Positions 8,734 to 24,428 of a stretch of 64,000 bases of DNA are shown piece after piece. The stretch lies in contig JADGHX010000006.1 of NCBI GenBank assembly GCA_019683695.1, positions 1 to 64,000 of the forward strand, given 5' to 3'. This DNA is from Steroidobacteraceae bacterium (GTDB lineage Bacteria; Pseudomonadota; Gammaproteobacteria; Steroidobacterales; Steroidobacteraceae). A program made the translations under genes and the position numbers. The stretch's first letter is position 1. Each line of letters begins with the position of its first letter. Under the pieces are notes generated by a model. It was not told the origin of the DNA, did no database searches, and worked only from the letters and a program-made list of their open reading frames with translations.

Positions 8734-10266
8734 TCACTTCGGGCGGAGCAGGTGTTTCTGCACCTTGCCGGATGGCGTGCGGGGCAGGGAATCGACGATC
8801 TCGAAGCGCTTCGGGACCTTGAATTTGGCGAGGCGGCTGCGGCAGTGCTGCTCGAGCGTGGGCACATCCAGCGTGGCACCGGGCGCCACCACCACGAAGG
8901 CGCAGCCCACTTCGCCCCATTGCGCATCGGGAATACCGACCACCGCGACGTCGCCCACCTGAGGCAGCTCCACGATCACCGCTTCGATCTCGGCGGGATA
9001 CACGTTCTCGCCGCCGGAGATGAACATGTCCTTGATGCGGTCGATGATGGAATAGAAGCCATCGGCATCGCGCACGGCGACATCGCCCGTGCGGAACCAG
9101 CCGTCGCGGAATGCGGTTTCGTTGAGCTCCGGACGGCGCCAGTACCCGGGCGTGACATTCGCGCCGCGCACCCAGATCTCGCCCGGCTCGCCGACGCCGA
9201 CCTCGCGGCCGTTCGCGTCGACGAGCTTCATTTCCACTGTCAGGTGCGGCAAACCCACGGCGCTCGGATGCGCGCGGATGCGATCGATGTCGCCGACCGG
9301 CTGGGCGACGGCGGAACAGATCTCGCTCATGCCCCAGCCGTTCACCATCATCACGCCGTCATCGAGCCAGCGCAGGATGTGCGCTTCCGGGTTGGGCGCA
9401 CCGCCGGTGATGTAGGCGGTGAGGCGCGCGAGACGGCGGCCGTCGAAGTTCGGGAGCTGCCGCATCATCATCGCCATCTGCGTCACGGAGAAGTAGTGCG
9501 TGATGCCGAGCGCAGGGTCCGCCAATCGCTCGTACGTGACCTGCGCCTCGAACTTCTGGCTGATGAGCACCCGGCCGCCCATGAGCAGCGGCACGCGCGC
9601 GGCGGCGAACAGACCGGCCGTGTGGAACATCGGCATGTCGCAGAGGAACACGCAGTCCGGCGAGCACTTGGTGCCGAGCGCCAGGTTCAGCGCCCCGGCA
9701 AACGCATTCATCTGGGTGACGATGACGCCCTTGGGCTTGCCCGTGGTGCCGGAGCTGTAGAGCAGGGTGATGGGCGTGTCCGCCGCCACGGCGGCCCCTT
9801 GCCTGGGGCGGGCCGGCGGCGGCGCGGCGGCGAGCCGCGCGGCGAAGCCCGACGCGCTGTCATCGAACACGAGGCGCGGGATCGTGCGATCTTCCACCAG
9901 CTCCGCGAATCTCGGCTCGAGCACGATGAGTGACGGCTCGCAGTCGCGCAGCATGAACGTGATTTCCGCCGCCGCGAGACGCCAGTTGAGCGGAACGAAG
10001 ATCGCCCCCGAGCGCACGCAGGCGAAGTGGAGCACGAGCATGTCCGCCGAGTTGCGCGAGAGCACCGCCACCCGCGCGCCCTGCGGCGTGCCGAGCAGCC
10101 CGGTGAGCACAGTGGCTGCGCGATCGATGGCGTCATCCAGCTGGGCATAGGTCAGGCGCCGGTCGGCCGCGAGGTCGTGCACGGCAACCTTGTCCGGAGT
10201 CGTGCGCGCGAAATGCGCGACGAAGTCGAGCAGGAGGGGCTGGATGGCGGAAGCGGGAAACGACAT
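8734..10266 (-). CDS. Acyl-CoA synthetase / AMP-dependent ligase
   Basis: ITLLYSSGTTGKPKGVIVTQ, WGMSEIC, WFRTGDVAVRDADGFYSIIDRIKDMFISGGENVYPAEIE, LPRTPSGKVQK; ATG at 10266 rather than the longer ORF start. Confidence 0.9.
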   Translation of the reverse strand: MSFPASAIQPLLLDFVAHFARTTPDKVAVHDLAADRRLTYAQLDDAIDRAATVLTGLLGTPQGARVAVLSRNSADMLVLHFACVRSGAIFVPLNWRLAAAEITFMLRDCEPSLIVLEPRFAELVEDRTIPRLVFDDSASGFAARLAAAPPPARPRQGAAVAADTPITLLYSSGTTGKPKGVIVTQMNAFAGALNLALGTKCSPDCVFLCDMPMFHTAGLFAAARVPLLMGGRVLISQKFEAQVTYERLADPALGITHYFSVTQMAMMMRQLPNFDGRRLARLTAYITGGAPNPEAHILRWLDDGVMMVNGWGMSEICSAVAQPVGDIDRIRAHPSAVGLPHLTVEMKLVDANGREVGVGEPGEIWVRGANVTPGYWRRPELNETAFRDGWFRTGDVAVRDADGFYSIIDRIKDMFISGGENVYPAEIEAVIVELPQVGDVAVVGIPDAQWGEVGCAFVVVAPGATLDVPTLEQHCRSRLAKFKVPKRFEIVDSLPRTPSGKVQKHLLRPK

Positions 10267-10546
10267 GCGAAAACGATCCTCGGACTGACACAAACGCGCA
10301 AAACTACCACGCTCCGGCGGGTCGGACTTGCCCCATGCGGCAACCGGCTGTGGTGCGGCGGGTGAGGGTTCACCGGCAGCGGGTCGCCGGAATCCTTCCT
10401 GCGGGGTGAGTGCCACGGTTTGCCGGCGGGAAGGCGCCGATCGTTTGCGCGGACCCCGGCGGGCGACCGATGAGGATGGGTCTTGAGCCGTTCCGCCACG
10501 CATGCCGCCGCCCCTCATAGAAGAGGTATGCACCAGAATGGAACGG

Positions 10547-10866
10547 GCGCTCCGTCGCTGCGAGGTGCTCCGTTGAGGCGGCACGCTCACCAGCTTGCGC
10601 AGCCGCGCCTGCGAGAGTGCCCGTGGCTTCGGTGTCTTCCATGGACGCCCGCGCTCCGTCGATGGGAGGTGCTTCGTTGACCAGGCGCACGCACCGGGCC
10701 GGCGCGGCCGCGATTGCGAGAGTGGCTCGCAGATTCCCGCGGACGCCGGCGCTCCGTCGATGCCTGATGCGCCGTTGATGTCGGACACGCACCTGTCGGC
10801 GCCGTCGAGTGCGCGAGTGCGCAGCTTCCGGCGATTTCGCATGGACCCGGCGCACCGTCCACGGTG
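10547..10866. repeat. Degenerate tandem array, about 3 units of ~98-104 bp
   Basis: Phase marker GCGCTCCGTCG at 10547, 10651 and 10749, and diverged GCGCACCGTCC at 10850; secondary GCGAGAGTG-like and ATGGACSCC-like blocks also recur. Confidence 0.72.
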
Positions 10867-10940
10867 AACTGTCACCAATCGTTGTCCCCGCAAGCCTTCG
10901 TCACACTTGCTGACGACTTTGTGCAAAGTGCGCCGATAGA

Positions 10941-17253: not shown

Positions 17254-18456
17254 TCACACGCATGCGCGCCTTGACCGATCCGCACTGCGAACAGCGCTTC
17301 GCAGCTTCGCGAGATCGTGGTGCCGCGTGTGGATATCGCGCCGATCCGCGGCCGTGCGCATGTCGCGGAGAATCTCGAGCGCCCGGAGCAGCACCGGCAG
17401 CGGGGGCCCGCTCGCGGTCACATCACGCAACTGGCTCTCCTTGAGCCGGGCCGCGGGCACTTCGATGAATCGTTTCACCAGCCCGTCGTGATGCTGGCGG
17501 GCAATCTCGCCGAAGAGATCGCACACCTCGAGATACGCGCTCGCATTCTGCTGAAACCAGTCCGTGTGCGCGTACTCATCCATCAAGGTGAGAAGCTCAT
17601 CGAGCAGGCTCGTGTGCGTCATGCACTCGCGCAGCCGTGCCTGATCCTGAGGAAGCATGAAGAGCATCTTGTCGACCAGCAGCTGCGCATAGTACGGATC
17701 GTTCGCCCGGCACAACCCGAGAAGCAGATCGAGCTCGTTGATGCCCGAGAAATCGCCGGCGTTCGCGCCGCGATACTCCTGCCGGCCCACGCGATACGGC
17801 TTGTAGTACGGCCGCACGGAATAGAAGAAGCGCTCCACATCCAGCTGCTCGAACAGCCGGCGGTTGATCTGCAGACACTCTTCGAGCGCCTGCTTTGCAG
17901 CCGCGAATGGCACATCCGCAACGGGGCTCGAAACGCCGAGATGCACGATGCTCGTGAGCGCGTCCGCGGCGCGCTGCAGGCAGAGAATCCCGCGCGTGTT
18001 CTCGTCGATGAACAGGAACTCGTCGCGGAGCGATGTGAAGCTCTTGCGCACGCCCGCTACGGCACGGTTGTGTGTGGCAAGGTGCCCTGTCGAGAACCGC
18101 GGCGCCATGCCAAGCGAGGCGCCCACGTGCAAGGCGAGGGAGGAGGCCTCCGTGAACGGCGAGCGTTCCTCGCGTGCGGGGTTCGTCAGCTCATGGCGGC
18201 GGAGCGCCCCGAGATACATCCCGACGTTTCCCAGCACGCCGAACGCACTTTCAAACCCATCCCCCGTGTTGCCTTCGGCAAGGAGCGCCGCCACGTGCAC
18301 GTGACCCTCATCGCGCAGAGCCGCCTTGATCGGATCGCCGAGGCCGATCACCTGTGCGCGGTCTTCCTGCGCGAAATAGAGGTTCTCGAGCTCCGTGTTC
18401 ATTTCCACGAAGGAGGTCCGGATCCAGTGGTCGAAAGCTTCTGCTTTGCGGCTCAT
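17254..18456 (-). CDS. PrnB / DUF1864 family protein (indoleamine 2,3-dioxygenase-like heme superfamily)
   Basis: Segment FFYSVRPYYKPYRVGRQEYRGANAGDFSGINELDLLLGLC plus overall all-helical ~400-aa architecture; ATGA overlap with the upstream gene. Confidence 0.72.
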   Translation of the reverse strand: MSRKAEAFDHWIRTSFVEMNTELENLYFAQEDRAQVIGLGDPIKAALRDEGHVHVAALLAEGNTGDGFESAFGVLGNVGMYLGALRRHELTNPAREERSPFTEASSLALHVGASLGMAPRFSTGHLATHNRAVAGVRKSFTSLRDEFLFIDENTRGILCLQRAADALTSIVHLGVSSPVADVPFAAAKQALEECLQINRRLFEQLDVERFFYSVRPYYKPYRVGRQEYRGANAGDFSGINELDLLLGLCRANDPYYAQLLVDKMLFMLPQDQARLRECMTHTSLLDELLTLMDEYAHTDWFQQNASAYLEVCDLFGEIARQHHDGLVKRFIEVPAARLKESQLRDVTASGPPLPVLLRALEILRDMRTAADRRDIHTRHHDLAKLRSAVRSADRSRRACV

Positions 18457-19601
18457 GGACGTTCACCTGGCCACGCGCGCGCGATACGCAGCGCATGCTC
18501 GGGGGTATTCACGATGTGGAATGACAAACGCACGATCTCGCCGCGGCAGTCGAATCTCACATCCGCTTCCTGCAGCCGGGCGCGGACGGCATCCAGCGCC
18601 GAGCCTGCGCGGATGCAGAGCGTGCCGCCTGTCTGCTCCGGAGCCGGTAAGCGCGCGCGCCACGCGCGAGGCATCTCCATTGCGAACACGTTCATCAGGG
18701 CGCGGTTGTGCGCAAAGATGGTTTGCACGCCAATCTCGTTCAGCACGTGAAGACTGGCGGCCGCGAGAACGAACGGCGCGACCGAAGGGGTGCCGCCCCA
18801 GAAGCGTCGGGCATCGTGCGCGTACTCGAACGAATGGATGTCGAACCGGAACGGGTCGGCATGCGAGAGCCAGCCGACGTCGGCCGGTTCGAGCTGCTCG
18901 ATGAGCCCCGGAGCGATCCACATGAACCCCGCTCCCGGGCCTCCACACAGCCACTTCACGCAGCTGCCGAGCACCACGTGCGCACCGAGCGTGTGAACGG
19001 CGAGCGGAAGTATGCCGGCGGACTGGGCGATATCGACGATGCAGAGAATCTCCCGATCCGCACAGAGCCGCGCAATCGCCTCCACGGGAGCCACTACGCC
19101 GGTTTGCGAGTGGACATGCGTGACGAGCACGGCGCGAACTTCGTCCGTCAACGCCTGCGACCACGTCTCGAGCAGAGCCGGCGAGCGCTCGTGCGGGATC
19201 AGCCTTGCCTCGAATCCGAAGCGTTCGGCTTGCTTCAGCACGAATCCCAGTGACGGGAAGGAGTCTTCCGCCGCGAGCAGGACGCGTCTGGAAGAGCCGT
19301 TGCGTGGAAGCGAAGCGAGCAGCTTCGAAAGGCCAGACGAGAGATTGGCCTGCGCGCAATACTCTTCGGGCATGCCGCCGAGCAGATCGGCAAGCGCCGA
19401 GCGAAACGCGTCATGGCGGGCGAGCCATTCCTGCCAGGCATCACCGCCCAGTTGCGACCAGGGCCGAAGGAAGCCCGCATGCAGCGCGTCCATACTCGCT
19501 TTCGGCAGGCAGCCCACGGAGTGCGTGAGTGCGTACGGGCCCGGGCCCGGCACGCAGAACCGCTCGGCAGTCTCGGGAGGCAAGGACGACGTCATTGGCA
19601 T
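18453..19601 (-). CDS. Kynureninase-like PLP-dependent aminotransferase class V enzyme
   Basis: SVGCLPKA N-terminus, VDIAQSAG, PLP-Lys region LGSCVKWLCGGPGAGFMW, RRFWGGTPSVAPFVLA. Confidence 0.78.
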   Translation of the reverse strand: MPMTSSLPPETAERFCVPGPGPYALTHSVGCLPKASMDALHAGFLRPWSQLGGDAWQEWLARHDAFRSALADLLGGMPEEYCAQANLSSGLSKLLASLPRNGSSRRVLLAAEDSFPSLGFVLKQAERFGFEARLIPHERSPALLETWSQALTDEVRAVLVTHVHSQTGVVAPVEAIARLCADREILCIVDIAQSAGILPLAVHTLGAHVVLGSCVKWLCGGPGAGFMWIAPGLIEQLEPADVGWLSHADPFRFDIHSFEYAHDARRFWGGTPSVAPFVLAAASLHVLNEIGVQTIFAHNRALMNVFAMEMPRAWRARLPAPEQTGGTLCIRAGSALDAVRARLQEADVRFDCRGEIVRLSFHIVNTPEHALRIARAWPGERP

Positions 19602-19827: not shown

Positions 19828-21414
19828 TCAGGCGAGGCTCGGCTCGGTGCGGTAGAAGTCCTGCATCGGGTAGCGCTTCGCATACAGCGCGAAAACGAGC
19901 GCCACGACCAGCGCGAACGCCGCGAAGAAGAACATCAGGAACGCCGTTTCGCTGAGCCCCGTTGCGCCGATGTGCGCGGTCACCGCCTCGTTGCGCACGC
20001 CGGCGTTCACCAGCAGCACCCACAGGTTGCCCACTGTGACGGAAAGGCTCCAGAACGCCATGATCACGCCCTTCATCGCGTGCGGCGCCTGGCTGTAGGC
20101 GAACTCGAGCCCCGTGGCCGACACCAGCACTTCGCCGAACGTGAGCAGCGCATAAGGCAACACCTGCCACGTGATCGAGACGGCGCTGCCGCCATCGAGC
20201 GCAAGCTGGATGCAGGCCGCCGCGATCCAGGCCAGCCCGGAGAAGGCGATACCGAATCCCATGCGACGCAGCGCCGTCGGCTCGATTCCGAAACGCCGCA
20301 GTACCGGATACAGGACCAGGTTGTTGAACGGGATGAGGATCATCACCAGCAGCGGATTGAGGGCCTGCATCTGCGCGGACTGGAACCACTCCGGTTTCGT
20401 CATGGCATCCGCCTGCAGGATCCACGTGGACGCCTTCTGATCGAAGAGCGACCAGAACGGGGTGACGAGCGCAAACACGATGAGCACGCGCAACACTGCC
20501 CGCACGCCCTCGACCGCTTCTGCCGGATGCGAGCGGCGCGCGCGCTCGAGCTGCATCCAGGCCCCGCCGCCACCAAACGCGAGAAGCAGCACGAGCGCGA
20601 GGCAGAGCGACGCGACGATTCCCAGCGAGCCCATCGCGCAGAGCGCCACTACCGCGAGCGCGACACCGATGCCGGCCACCACGAGCCCCGGGCGGCTCTC
20701 ACCGGGTGACTGCGCGAGCAGCGCCGTGCGCACCACGCGCAGGAAGGAATCAGGGTCCGCCTGGCGCTGCGGCGGCACGTGCACGTACTTGCGGCGGCCC
20801 GACCAGAAGACCACCGTGGCGATGAGCATCAGCAGCCCCGGTATGCCGAACGCGACGGCGCCGCCGTGCTCGCGCAGGAAGATCGGCATGAGGAGCGAGG
20901 CGAAGAACGACCCGAAATTGATGATCCAGTAGAAGGCGTCGAACACCGGCTTCGCCCGGTGCTTGTTCGACTGATCGAACTGATCGCCGACGAACGAGGA
21001 GACGAGCGGCTTGATGCCGCCCGAGCCCAGCGCGATCAGGAACAGCCCGGTGTAGAACCCCGTGCGGTTGTCCTCGAACGCCGCAAGGCACGCATGACCG
21101 GCCACATACACCAGCGAGAGCCAGAGGATGGTCGAGTACTTCCCGAAGAAGCGATCCGCCAGCCAGCCGCCGAGCAGCGGGAAGAAATACACGCCCAGCA
21201 CGAAGGTGTGGAACACATCCTTCGCGATTCCGGCGCGCTCGGCCTCCGGGGCGTACAGCAGCAACGTCGTGACGAGAAAGGGCGTCAGGATGTTGCGCAT
21301 CCCGTAAAAGCTGAAGCGCTCGCAGCCCTCATTGGCGATGATGTAGGGAATCTGGCGCGGCAGGCGGGCGCGGTGCGCGTCGAGCGTGACGTCGGCTGCG
21401 GTGACGGTGTTCAT
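19828..21414 (-). CDS. POT/PTR family oligopeptide:H+ symporter
   Basis: IIANEGCERFSFYGMRNILTPFL, GGWLADRFFGKYSTILWLSLVYVAGH, FYWIINFGSFFASLLMP; typical POT signatures. Confidence 0.9.
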   Translation of the reverse strand: MNTVTAADVTLDAHRARLPRQIPYIIANEGCERFSFYGMRNILTPFLVTTLLLYAPEAERAGIAKDVFHTFVLGVYFFPLLGGWLADRFFGKYSTILWLSLVYVAGHACLAAFEDNRTGFYTGLFLIALGSGGIKPLVSSFVGDQFDQSNKHRAKPVFDAFYWIINFGSFFASLLMPIFLREHGGAVAFGIPGLLMLIATVVFWSGRRKYVHVPPQRQADPDSFLRVVRTALLAQSPGESRPGLVVAGIGVALAVVALCAMGSLGIVASLCLALVLLLAFGGGGAWMQLERARRSHPAEAVEGVRAVLRVLIVFALVTPFWSLFDQKASTWILQADAMTKPEWFQSAQMQALNPLLVMILIPFNNLVLYPVLRRFGIEPTALRRMGFGIAFSGLAWIAAACIQLALDGGSAVSITWQVLPYALLTFGEVLVSATGLEFAYSQAPHAMKGVIMAFWSLSVTVGNLWVLLVNAGVRNEAVTAHIGATGLSETAFLMFFFAAFALVVALVFALYAKRYPMQDFYRTEPSLA

Positions 21415-22722: not shown

Positions 22723-22919
22723 TTGGAATTGTGACGCTCAGCGCTGCAGTGGCAGCGGCAGTTCTGCGGTTTGATCAATCACTGACCACCCTCGATGTCG
22801 CCCCCACCCCGGAGGCGCGCGCCACGCGTCGCGGCTTTACCGATGCCGTCCGCAGGAGTAGCGTCGCGGCCGGCGCAGAACGAAGGCGGTGGTCTGAGAA
22901 TCGCCGCAGGAGGGCACCC

Positions 22920-23564
22920 GTGACGCCGTGGGAGCTCCAGGGCCGCGAGTTCGTCAACTGCAACTGCTCGCATGCCTGCCCGTGCCAGTTCAACTCGCCG
23001 CCCTCGCGGGGCTTCTGTGAGGCGGTGGGCTCCTTTGCCATCGACCGGGGCCACCACGGCGGGGTGAGCCTCGATGGGCTCCGGTTCGCGATGCTCGCGC
23101 GCTGGCCCGGGGCCATCCACGAGGGCCGCGGCGTGTGTCAGCCGATTCTCGATGCCCGCGCGGACGACGCGCAGCGCAACGGCCTGCTGCGGATTCTCAC
23201 GGGCCAGGATACCGACCCGTTCGCGACGCTGTTCGCCGTTTTTTCAACCACGTTCGAAAAAGTGCTCGACCCGATCCTCGCGCCCATCGAGTTCGAGGTG
23301 GACGTCGACGCGCGGCGCGGCCACGTGCGCGTGCCCGGCGTGTTCGAGACGGTCGGCGAGCCGATCCGCAATCCCGTCACCGGTGCCGAGCACCGCGTGC
23401 GCATCGATCTGCCGCACGGGTTCGAGTACGAGATTGCCGAGATCGGCTCGGCCTCGAGCCGCACGCAGGGCGCCTTCGTGATCGACCTGCAGGGCACCTA
23501 TGGCCAGTTCGCGCGGCTGCACCTGAACAATCACGGCGTGGTCCGGCACCGCGCCATCGCCTGA
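22920..23564 (+). CDS. DUF1326 domain-containing protein
   Basis: WELQGREFVNCNCSHACPCQFNSPPSRGFCEA signature; GTG start. Confidence 0.85.
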   Translation: MTPWELQGREFVNCNCSHACPCQFNSPPSRGFCEAVGSFAIDRGHHGGVSLDGLRFAMLARWPGAIHEGRGVCQPILDARADDAQRNGLLRILTGQDTDPFATLFAVFSTTFEKVLDPILAPIEFEVDVDARRGHVRVPGVFETVGEPIRNPVTGAEHRVRIDLPHGFEYEIAEIGSASSRTQGAFVIDLQGTYGQFARLHLNNHGVVRHRAIA

Positions 23565-23567
23565 AAC

Positions 23568-24428
23568 ATGCTGGAGAAGATTCTGCGCAACGGGCGCGCG
23601 CTGGTGGGGGCCGCGCTCGCGGTGCTCATCGCTCTGGCGTGGAGCTATCTCTGGCAGGGCGCCGGCATGGGCATGTCGGCGCTCGAGATGACGATCCTCG
23701 CACTCTTTCCGCATGCGCAACCCGAGCCCATGCCGGGCATGGATGCGCCCGTCATTGCCTACAGCACCGCCGTCGCCATGTGGTGGGTGATGATGATCGC
23801 GATGATGGTGCCCGGCGCCACGCCACTGATCCTGCTCTATGAAAAAGTGGCCCGCTCGGCGCCGCGGCGCGCCGATGAGGGTTCCACGGCTGCCGCTACA
23901 GCGCCGTCAGGGGCCGTCTCCAATGCGCCTGACCTCGCCGGCACCGCCGTCCTGAATACGCTGCTGCTTGCGGCAGGCTATCTCGCGTGTTGGCTGGCGT
24001 TCGCCGTCGCTGCGGCAGGTCTTCAGTTCGCTTTCCAGCGACGGGGCCTCATCTCGCCGATGGTGCTGTGGTCGCGCAGCGCTGTGCTCTCGGCGGCCGT
24101 GCTGATCGGGGCCGGCCTCTGGCAGCTCTCTCCGCTGAAGCACGCCTGCCTCAGGCATTGCCGCGGGCCCATTCACTTCCTGACGCGCCGTTACCGGCCC
24201 GGCCCCACGGGCGCATTCGTCATGGGCCTCGAGCATGGCGCCTGGTGCGTTGGCTGCTGCTGGACGCTCATGGCCGTGTTGTTCGTGGCGGGTGTGATGA
24301 ATCTTGCGTGGATCGCCCTGCTCACGGTGCTCGTGCTGATCGAGAAGCTTGCTCCCGCAGGACCGATCGTCAGCCGCATCACGGGGGCGCTGCTCATCGC
24401 CTGGGGTGTGGCCACGCTTCTTGTGTGA
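23568..24428 (+). CDS. DUF2182 domain-containing integral membrane protein
   Basis: WWVMMIAMMVPGATPLILLYEKVAR, LSPLKHACLRHCRGP, GLEHGAWCVGCCWTLMAVLFVAGVMNLAWI. Confidence 0.88.
   Translation: MLEKILRNGRALVGAALAVLIALAWSYLWQGAGMGMSALEMTILALFPHAQPEPMPGMDAPVIAYSTAVAMWWVMMIAMMVPGATPLILLYEKVARSAPRRADEGSTAAATAPSGAVSNAPDLAGTAVLNTLLLAAGYLACWLAFAVAAAGLQFAFQRRGLISPMVLWSRSAVLSAAVLIGAGLWQLSPLKHACLRHCRGPIHFLTRRYRPGPTGAFVMGLEHGAWCVGCCWTLMAVLFVAGVMNLAWIALLTVLVLIEKLAPAGPIVSRITGALLIAWGVATLLV

What the first reader, a model, noticed from the sequence alone, without database searches (positions are those of the whole stretch)
17254..19601. Translationally coupled kynureninase-like + PrnB/DUF1864 (IDO-superfamily) pair: candidate uncharacterised indole/tryptophan-cleaving module
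Seen: the kynureninase-like stop and the PrnB-like start share ATGA (18453-18456), so both are almost certainly co-translated. The PLP enzyme carries VKWLCGGPGAGFMW and RRFWGGTPSV, close to kynureninase active-site segments. The partner carries RPYYKPYRVGRQEYRGANAGDFSGINE, typical of PrnB/DUF1864. Known: PrnB belongs to the heme-dependent IDO/TDO superfamily; kynureninase normally acts two steps after IDO/TDO, with an arylformamidase between. No formamidase, classical TDO or prnA/C/D is present here. Inference: a two-enzyme route that oxidises an indole substrate and cleaves the product, distinct from both pyrrolnitrin synthesis and canonical kynurenine catabolism. From memory, a similar pair exists in Shewanella (structure of a DUF1864 protein known); this needs checking.
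Basis: partly seen in the sequence, partly recalled or inferred. Interest (0 to 1): 0.72.

Follow-up and report, generated by a model that had tools for sequence, protein, structure and literature searches.

The report
PrnB-like oxygenase plus kynureninase-like enzyme
Two overlapping bacterial genes most likely encode a second, unusual route that opens the ring of tryptophan (or a close relative) and cuts the product to an anthranilate-type compound, which would give a function to an enzyme family whose structure has been solved for twenty years without an assigned role.

Summary
In detail: a 382-aa PLP enzyme (18453-19601, -) and a 400-aa PF08933 protein (17254-18456, -) overlap at ATGA. The PF08933 protein is a close relative of Shewanella SO4414 (PDB 1zee/2nwb, heme-bound), not of pyrrolnitrin PrnB. 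The PLP enzyme falls with kynureninases, has the selectivity residues of kynurenine-preferring kynureninase (W/G/T), but lacks the kynureninase Tyr (Y226) and scores far below the kynureninase cut-off. The pair is conserved: in 200 genomes of the family, 37 of 42 with PF08933 also carry such a PLP enzyme, against 6 of 158 without. In Sphingomonadaceae the same PLP family, where PF08933 is missing beside it, sits next to a divergent tryptophan 2,3-dioxygenase instead (7 of 7 loci), usually with the same 4-base overlap and Lrp regulator. PF08933 thus stands in for TDO. In other relatives it lies in clusters with a formamidase-like cyclase and a salicylyl/anthraniloyl-CoA monooxygenase. Best reading: a second Trp dioxygenase-kynureninase route to anthranilate, beside the organism's canonical TDO and KynU. 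Both partners lack canonical substrate-loop or catalytic residues, so a Trp derivative as substrate is not excluded.

The parts
17254..18456 (-). PF08933 (PrnB/SO4414-type) heme-dependent aromatic oxygenase, 400 aa
   Evidence: PF08933 537 bits, full length; PDB 1zee/2nwb 470 bits; 52% identity and TM 0.93-0.98 to 2nwb_A in the structural alignment; AF2 model pLDDT 90
18453..19601 (-). Kynureninase-like fold-type I PLP enzyme ('group A'), 382 aa; start at ATG 19601 (not the longer ORF from 19883)
   Evidence: Aminotran_5 83 bits; group profile best PDB hit kynureninase 1qz9, 167 bits, E 4e-48; tree with canonical KynU; homologues begin close to this ATG
18453..18456 (-). ATGA overlap of stop and start (translational coupling)
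   Evidence: Sequence; 4-base overlaps also in L012, L013, L019, L027 and in six of seven TDO-PLP loci
17488..17493 (-). H322-H323, invariant; H323 is the presumed axial heme ligand
   Evidence: Invariant in 31 homologues; H323 aligns with the IDO1 His of ..SYHLQIV.. and with the His of PrnB RAPHL
17812..17814 (-). R215, invariant Arg of the VRPYYKPY motif (position of IDO1 R231, from memory)
   Evidence: Invariant; present in PrnB too, so it does not separate the two
17404..17418 (-). TASGP loop, at the position of the GTGGT loop of TDO/IDO
   Evidence: T347, S349, G350, P351 invariant in 31 homologues
18954..18956 (-). K216, PLP Schiff-base lysine
   Evidence: Aligns with K227 of P. fluorescens KynU; invariant
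18861..18875 (-). GWLSH motif (KynU W256/H259)
   Evidence: W and H invariant in group A and KynU, absent from the two outgroup proteins
18789..18794 (-). G270-T271; with W56, the triad of kynurenine-preferring KynU (Pf G281/T282/W64; human S332/N333/H102)
   Evidence: own canonical KynU carries the human-type triad
18528..18551 (-). DxR...R motif (KynU D367, R369, R375), substrate carboxylate side
   Evidence: Invariant in groups A and B and KynU
19828..21414 (-). POT/PTR2 peptide transporter directly upstream; not found next to the pair in relatives, so not shown to belong to the module
   Evidence: PF00854 258 bits; no POT hit in other loci in the neighbour scan

Best explanation
The two genes encode the first and the cleaving step of a second kynurenine-type route. 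The PF08933 protein uses a His-ligated heme and O2 to open the pyrrole ring of L-tryptophan (or a close Trp derivative), giving an N-formylkynurenine-type product (inferred). A formamidase encoded elsewhere, or tolerance of the formyl group, follows (unknown). The PLP enzyme then cleaves the side chain to alanine and an anthranilate-type acid (inferred from kinship and pocket residues). Co-translation keeps the two in step. In this organism the module runs beside a canonical TDO and a 3-hydroxykynurenine-type KynU, which more probably serve NAD synthesis. Shown here: family, fold and residue assignments, conservation of the pair, and replacement by TDO next to the same PLP family. Not shown: any catalytic activity.
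For: Presence-absence link in 200 family genomes: 37/42 vs 6/158, Fisher p 1.5e-28; all six group-A genes there adjoin PF08933. Sphingomonadaceae: 6/7 vs 14/294, p 3e-7. Genomes in both sets are related, so the p-values overstate independence. Partner swap: seven group-A genes without an adjacent PF08933 gene (L134, L186/L224, L209-L213) all adjoin a divergent TDO (PF03301 92-104 bits in the four scored), six of seven with a 4-base overlap, mostly with a divergent Lrp/AsnC gene as at PF08933 pairs; the TDO-paired genes are nested among PF08933-paired ones in the tree. Group A + B + KynU form a clade (0.987) apart from SufS and a VC1184-type protein; pocket triad W/G/T as in P. fluorescens KynU. 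Heme His, Arg and loop invariant. Clusters: PF08933 with group-B PLP and a PF04199 cyclase in L042; with a salicylyl/anthraniloyl-CoA monooxygenase (1236 bits, cut-off 1078, in L233), RidA, acyl-CoA dehydrogenases, enoyl-CoA hydratase, cyclase, amino-acid permease and group-C PLP in G144 and G197 (L233/L234, L236/L237), similar in G162. f145 genomes have KynU and an alpha/beta hydrolase but no TDO (0/3), and do have the pair. Published: TyrR controls tryptophan 'tdo-kyn' in Shewanellaceae (PMC5343134).
Against: No activity data. The PLP enzyme is far below the kynureninase cut-off (53 vs 246 bits) and replaces Y226 by V, H204 by Q and N230 by C. Both oxygenase types that pair with it lack the GTGGT loop of canonical TDO (TASGPP; GSASLKG or close variants). 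Most members of the host family that carry PF08933 also have TDO (39/42), so it is no simple TDO replacement there. No anthranilate catabolic gene was found in the window or in about 0.7 Mb of the 5.2 Mb genome.
Confidence: 0.68

Rival explanations
1. Same chemistry (ring dioxygenation, then kynureninase-type cleavage) but on a tryptophan derivative rather than L-Trp: ring-hydroxylated, methylated or otherwise modified Trp, possibly released from peptides.
For: Both oxygenase families that pair with group A lack the GTGGT substrate loop, while TDOs paired with canonical KynU (D. deserti, Marinovum) and the organism's own TDO keep it; group A lost Y226 in parallel; the host already has canonical TDO and KynU; a peptide transporter lies upstream here and an oligopeptidase B-like gene beside the pair in L129/L131.
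Against: Loop change need not alter substrate; pocket triad matches plain kynurenine; anthraniloyl-CoA-type genes in relatives fit unsubstituted anthranilate; the transporter is not a conserved neighbour.
Confidence: 0.22
2. PrnB-like chemistry: rearrangement of Trp to an aminophenylpyrrole for a natural product, with the PLP enzyme as a tailoring step.
For: The Pfam family is named after PrnB; fold matches PrnB.
Against: Only 47 bits to PrnB vs 634 to SO4414 with the family profile; no prnA/C/D-type neighbours seen, whereas true PrnB sits between halogenase genes and a Rieske oxygenase gene; the PLP partner and catabolic neighbours do not fit.
Confidence: 0.05
3. The PLP enzyme is a C-S lyase, desulfurase or other class-V enzyme and the pairing reflects some non-tryptophan pathway.
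For: Single-sequence NCBIfam ranks EgtE (72 bits) and SufS (68) above kynureninase (53), all far below cut-offs.
Against: Group profile prefers kynureninase by 75 bits; structure search ranks 1qz9 first, though only narrowly; tree and W256/H259/D367/R369 residues; partner swap with TDO.
Confidence: 0.05

Closest known systems
Shewanella oneidensis SO4414 (PDB 1zee, 2nwb; 'putative 2,3-dioxygenase')
   Same: Full-length orthologue-like match, 470 bits, same fold, heme-bound in 2nwb
   Different: No reaction is given in the records seen; the neighbouring kynureninase gene in Shewanella is remembered, not tested
PrnB, monodechloroaminopyrrolnitrin synthase (PDB 2v7i, 9dfg)
   Same: Pfam PF08933, IDO-like fold, axial His and the Arg of RPxYxPxRVG
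   Different: 13-20% identity in the structural alignments; prn cluster absent; PLP partner present
Kynureninase (TIGR01814; PDB 1qz9, 3e9k)
   Same: Fold, PLP Lys, W256, H259, D367, R369, R375, bacterial W64/G281/T282 triad
   Different: Y226 to V, H204 to Q, N230 to C; 53 bits against a cut-off of 246
Tryptophan 2,3-dioxygenase - kynureninase pairs (e.g. Deinococcus deserti kynU-kynA, Marinovum pMaD4)
   Same: Heme oxygenase gene next to a kynureninase gene
   Different: Here the oxygenase is PF08933 and the PLP enzyme is a sister group of KynU
Aerobic anthraniloyl-CoA pathway (2-aminobenzoyl-CoA monooxygenase type, from memory)
   Same: NF006101-type monooxygenase/reductase, enoyl-CoA hydratase, acyl-CoA dehydrogenases and RidA beside PF08933 in relatives
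   Different: Not found near the pair in this window

Membership tests
PF08933 (PrnB family) | Match over the curated cut-off, full length | tested here: met
   537 bits vs 27, positions 2-386 of 387
His-ligated heme-dependent aromatic oxygenases (IDO/TDO/PrnB) | IDO-like helical fold | tested here: met
   AF2 pLDDT 90; 2nwb, PrnB and IDO1 are the best PDB matches
His-ligated heme-dependent aromatic oxygenases (IDO/TDO/PrnB) | Conserved axial His | tested here: met
   H323 invariant, aligned with the IDO1 and PrnB His
His-ligated heme-dependent aromatic oxygenases (IDO/TDO/PrnB) | Heme binding and oxygenase activity | not testable with these tools
   Only the relative 2nwb is solved with ferric heme (title)
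Tryptophan/indoleamine 2,3-dioxygenase | GTGGT substrate loop | tested here: not met
   TASGPP at that position
Pyrrolnitrin PrnB | Close sequence match and prn context (prnA, prnC, prnD) | tested here: not met
   47 bits vs 634 for SO4414; neighbours differ from those of a true prnB
Kynureninase (TIGR01814 equivalog) | Score over the equivalog cut-off | tested here: not met
   53.4 vs 246.4
Kynureninase | PLP Lys, W256, H259, D367/R369/R375 | tested here: met
   K216, W244, H247, D351, R353, R358
Kynureninase | Tyr before the PLP Lys (Y226) | tested here: not met
   V/I/L in groups A and B; Y in all 21 KynU sequences
Kynureninase | Phylogenetic grouping with KynU rather than desulfurases | tested here: met
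   A+B+KynU clade, support 0.987, two outgroup sequences only
Kynureninase | Cleavage of kynurenine | not testable with these tools
   No assay
Canonical kynurenine route to anthranilate | Formamidase gene with the module | tested here: inconclusive
   None recognised in the window; PF04199 absent from the genome though canonical TDO/KynU are present; cyclase present in relatives L042, L088, L233, L235, L236

The most novel reading that the evidence does not exclude
Group-A PLP enzymes and their two alternative, unrelated-in-sequence heme partners (PF08933 type and loop-altered TDO type) form a separate pathway for a tryptophan derivative, in which loss of the GTGGT loop in the oxygenase and of Tyr226 in the kynureninase are matched changes; the product may be a substituted anthranilate, or the formyl group may be retained through cleavage.
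Probability: 0.25. Interest if true: 0.78.

Novelty: new variant of a known kind. Interest (0 to 1): 0.55.

Why it matters
PF08933 proteins of the SO4414 type have had crystal structures since 2005 and are still named after a pyrrolnitrin enzyme they barely resemble. The genomic linkage and the partner swap with TDO give a specific, cheap-to-test function for these proteins and for a PLP family that curated models do not name. It also shows two unrelated-in-sequence heme oxygenases being exchanged beside one lyase, and two parallel kynurenine-type routes in one organism, with residues suggesting 3-hydroxykynurenine and kynurenine specificity respectively.

Tried and rejected
POT peptide transporter as part of the module: not found next to the pair in other loci. 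PF08933 as a plain TDO replacement in the host family: rejected, 39 of 42 PF08933 genomes also have TDO. Pyrrolnitrin-like cluster: rejected on sequence and context. The CoA ligase at window 8734-10926 as part of an anthranilate cluster: no supporting neighbours; the panel found no anthraniloyl-CoA-type gene in the window, and about 0.7 Mb of the genome sampled gave only weak SDR and OYE-domain hits, so the genome is not settled. Literature searches for SO4414/SO_4413, 1ZEE/2NWB and PrnB with kynureninase gave no functional paper; the structure paper remembered for SO4414 and the HDAO superfamily paper are not held. Sampled f145 genomes were at first thought to be Shewanella, but their PF08933 protein looked too far from SO4414, so they are left unnamed. 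The indolepyruvate oxidoreductase in the large relatives' clusters raised an indole-pyruvate/indoleacetate alternative; not followed because a kynureninase-type enzyme needs an alpha-amino acid. Failed calls: whole genome as file, 'of' with a locus.

Full report
OBSERVATION. The two ORFs exist as described. On the minus strand, 18453-19601 encodes a 382-aa protein (P0001) and 17254-18456 a 400-aa protein (P0002); stop and start share ATGA at 18453-18456. The alternative start of the first ORF at 19883 is not needed: homologues begin close to the ATG at 19601. A POT/PTR2 transporter lies upstream on the same strand.

WHAT THE OXYGENASE IS. P0002 matches PF08933 over its whole length with 537 bits. 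Its close solved relative is Shewanella SO4414, 470 bits; with a 31-sequence profile SO4414 scores 634 bits, PrnB 47 and IDO1 21. The AF2 model (pLDDT 90) superposes on 2nwb with TM 0.93-0.98, on PrnB with about 0.6-0.8 and on IDO1 with about 0.6-0.7. H322 and H323 are invariant; H323 aligns with the IDO1 His in SYHLQIV and with the PrnB His in RAPHL, so it is the likely axial ligand. R215 is invariant and shared with PrnB. The loop TASGPP stands where TDO and IDO have GTGGT. So the family and fold are established, but the canonical substrate loop is not.

WHAT THE PLP ENZYME IS. Alone, P0001 is ambiguous: EgtE 72 bits, SufS 68, kynureninase 53, all far below cut-offs. With 16 relatives ('group A') the profile prefers P. 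fluorescens kynureninase 1qz9 (167 bits, E 4e-48) over the next family (92 bits); its model's best PDB match is 1qz9 (TM 0.86), narrowly ahead of SufS. In a tree, group A and a smaller group B form the sister clade of canonical KynU (clade support 0.987), apart from SufS and a VC1184-type protein; a third group C branches outside (two outgroup sequences only). Group A keeps the PLP Lys, W256, H259, D367, R369 and R375 of KynU, and the triad W64/G281/T282. The contrasting triad H102/S332/N333 marks 3-hydroxykynurenine-preferring enzymes (established knowledge, from memory). It lacks Y226, H204 and N230.

CONSERVATION OF THE PAIR. In 200 genomes of the host family, PF08933 occurs in 42 and a group A/B/C PLP gene (200 bits or more with the group-A profile) in 43; 37 have both (Fisher p 1.5e-28). 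All six group-A genes there adjoin PF08933. In 301 Sphingomonadaceae the figures are 6 of 7 against 14 of 294 (p 3e-7). These genomes are related, so the p-values are indicative. In 29 further PF08933 genomes, 20 carry a hit of 200 bits or more, 18 of them over 420, including eight Parvularcula-type genomes where the two genes are apart. Three arrangements occur: PLP then oxygenase, oxygenase then PLP, and divergent, with 4-base overlaps in both co-directional orders.

THE SWAP. Seven group-A genes without a neighbouring PF08933 gene (L134, L186, L209-L213) all lie next to a divergent TDO, PF03301 at 92-104 bits in the four scored and about 25% identical to the host's canonical TDO. Six of seven overlap by four bases, and six of seven have an Lrp/AsnC gene like those beside PF08933 pairs. 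The TDO-paired genes nest among PF08933-paired ones in a clade of support 0.998, so the heme partner has been exchanged at least once while the PLP gene stayed. This is the strongest sign that PF08933 proteins of this type supply a TDO-like product. One caution: these TDOs also lack the GTGGT loop (GSASLKG or close variants), while TDOs paired with true KynU in D. deserti and Marinovum keep it.

WIDER CLUSTERS. In L042 the order is PF08933, group-B PLP, PF04199 cyclase (a family that includes KynB; TIGR03035 only 33 bits). In G144, G162 and G197 the neighbourhood of PF08933 holds an acyl-CoA dehydrogenase, RidA, enoyl-CoA hydratase, an NF006101-type monooxygenase/reductase (1236 bits in L233, cut-off 1078), a cyclase, an amino-acid permease and a group-C PLP gene; an indolepyruvate oxidoreductase was scored in G197 and looks present in the other two. 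The NF006101 family is named for salicylyl-CoA; that it stands for anthraniloyl-CoA here is an inference from the kynureninase-like genes. Genomes of another family (f145) have KynU preceded by an overlapping or adjoining alpha/beta hydrolase (formamidase by position only) and no PF03301 gene (0/3), while they hold the PF08933 pair.

HOST CONTEXT. The host genome has a canonical TDO (contig C80) and a KynU of 424 bits with the human-type triad, next to a FAD monooxygenase that I read as KMO-like (its best NCBIfam match was VioC, below cut-off). So this module is a second route, not a replacement; a division of labour between NAD synthesis and anthranilate formation is inferred. PF04199 is absent from the genome, so even the canonical route there must use another formamidase.

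KNOWN OR NEW. A published regulon study lists tryptophan degradation 'tdo-kyn' under TyrR in Shewanellaceae (PMC5343134), which probably means SO4414 and its neighbour (inference). The structures are old. I found no paper in the held library that assigns a reaction. The module is therefore a new variant of a known kind: kynurenine-type cleavage by a PF08933 oxygenase and a divergent kynureninase.

VERDICT. Observation confirmed; interpretation partly supported. Best explanation 0.68; a Trp-derivative substrate 0.22; pyrrolnitrin-like 0.05; unrelated PLP chemistry 0.05.

Noticed in passing
L209-L213, L134, L186, L216-L220, L224: A divergent TDO subfamily (PF03301 about 92-104 bits where scored) with GSASLKG-type sequence instead of GTGGT, always beside the group-A PLP gene.
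   Followed up: partly
L128:4275-6883 and L127:5790-6566 (host contigs C138, C80): Host also encodes canonical TDO, a 3-hydroxykynurenine-type KynU and an adjacent FAD monooxygenase (KMO-like by my reading).
   Followed up: partly
L233-L237: Large clusters in relatives joining PF08933 and group-C PLP with an NF006101-type monooxygenase, cyclase, indolepyruvate oxidoreductase alpha/beta, a CDGSH-cupin protein, TonB receptor and amino-acid permease; role of the indolepyruvate oxidoreductase and CDGSH-cupin unexplained.
   Followed up: partly
L184-L192 (Parvularcula-type genomes): Group-A PLP gene not next to PF08933 but, in the four loci read, overlapping or adjoining a universal-stress-like gene; both occur in the same genomes (8 of 8).
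   Followed up: no
L231 (Paraburkholderia sabiae plasmid), L232 (Sulfitobacter plasmid): Group-B PLP enzymes without PF08933 beside them; L231 has M20 peptidase, MFS transporter and cupin neighbours.
   Followed up: no
window 22731-24428: Adjacent pair that looks like a DUF1326-type protein and a DUF2182-type membrane protein (from memory, not scanned).
   Followed up: no
window 8734-10926 (-): Acyl/aryl-CoA ligase-like ORF downstream of the pair, separated by other genes; substrate unknown.
   Followed up: no
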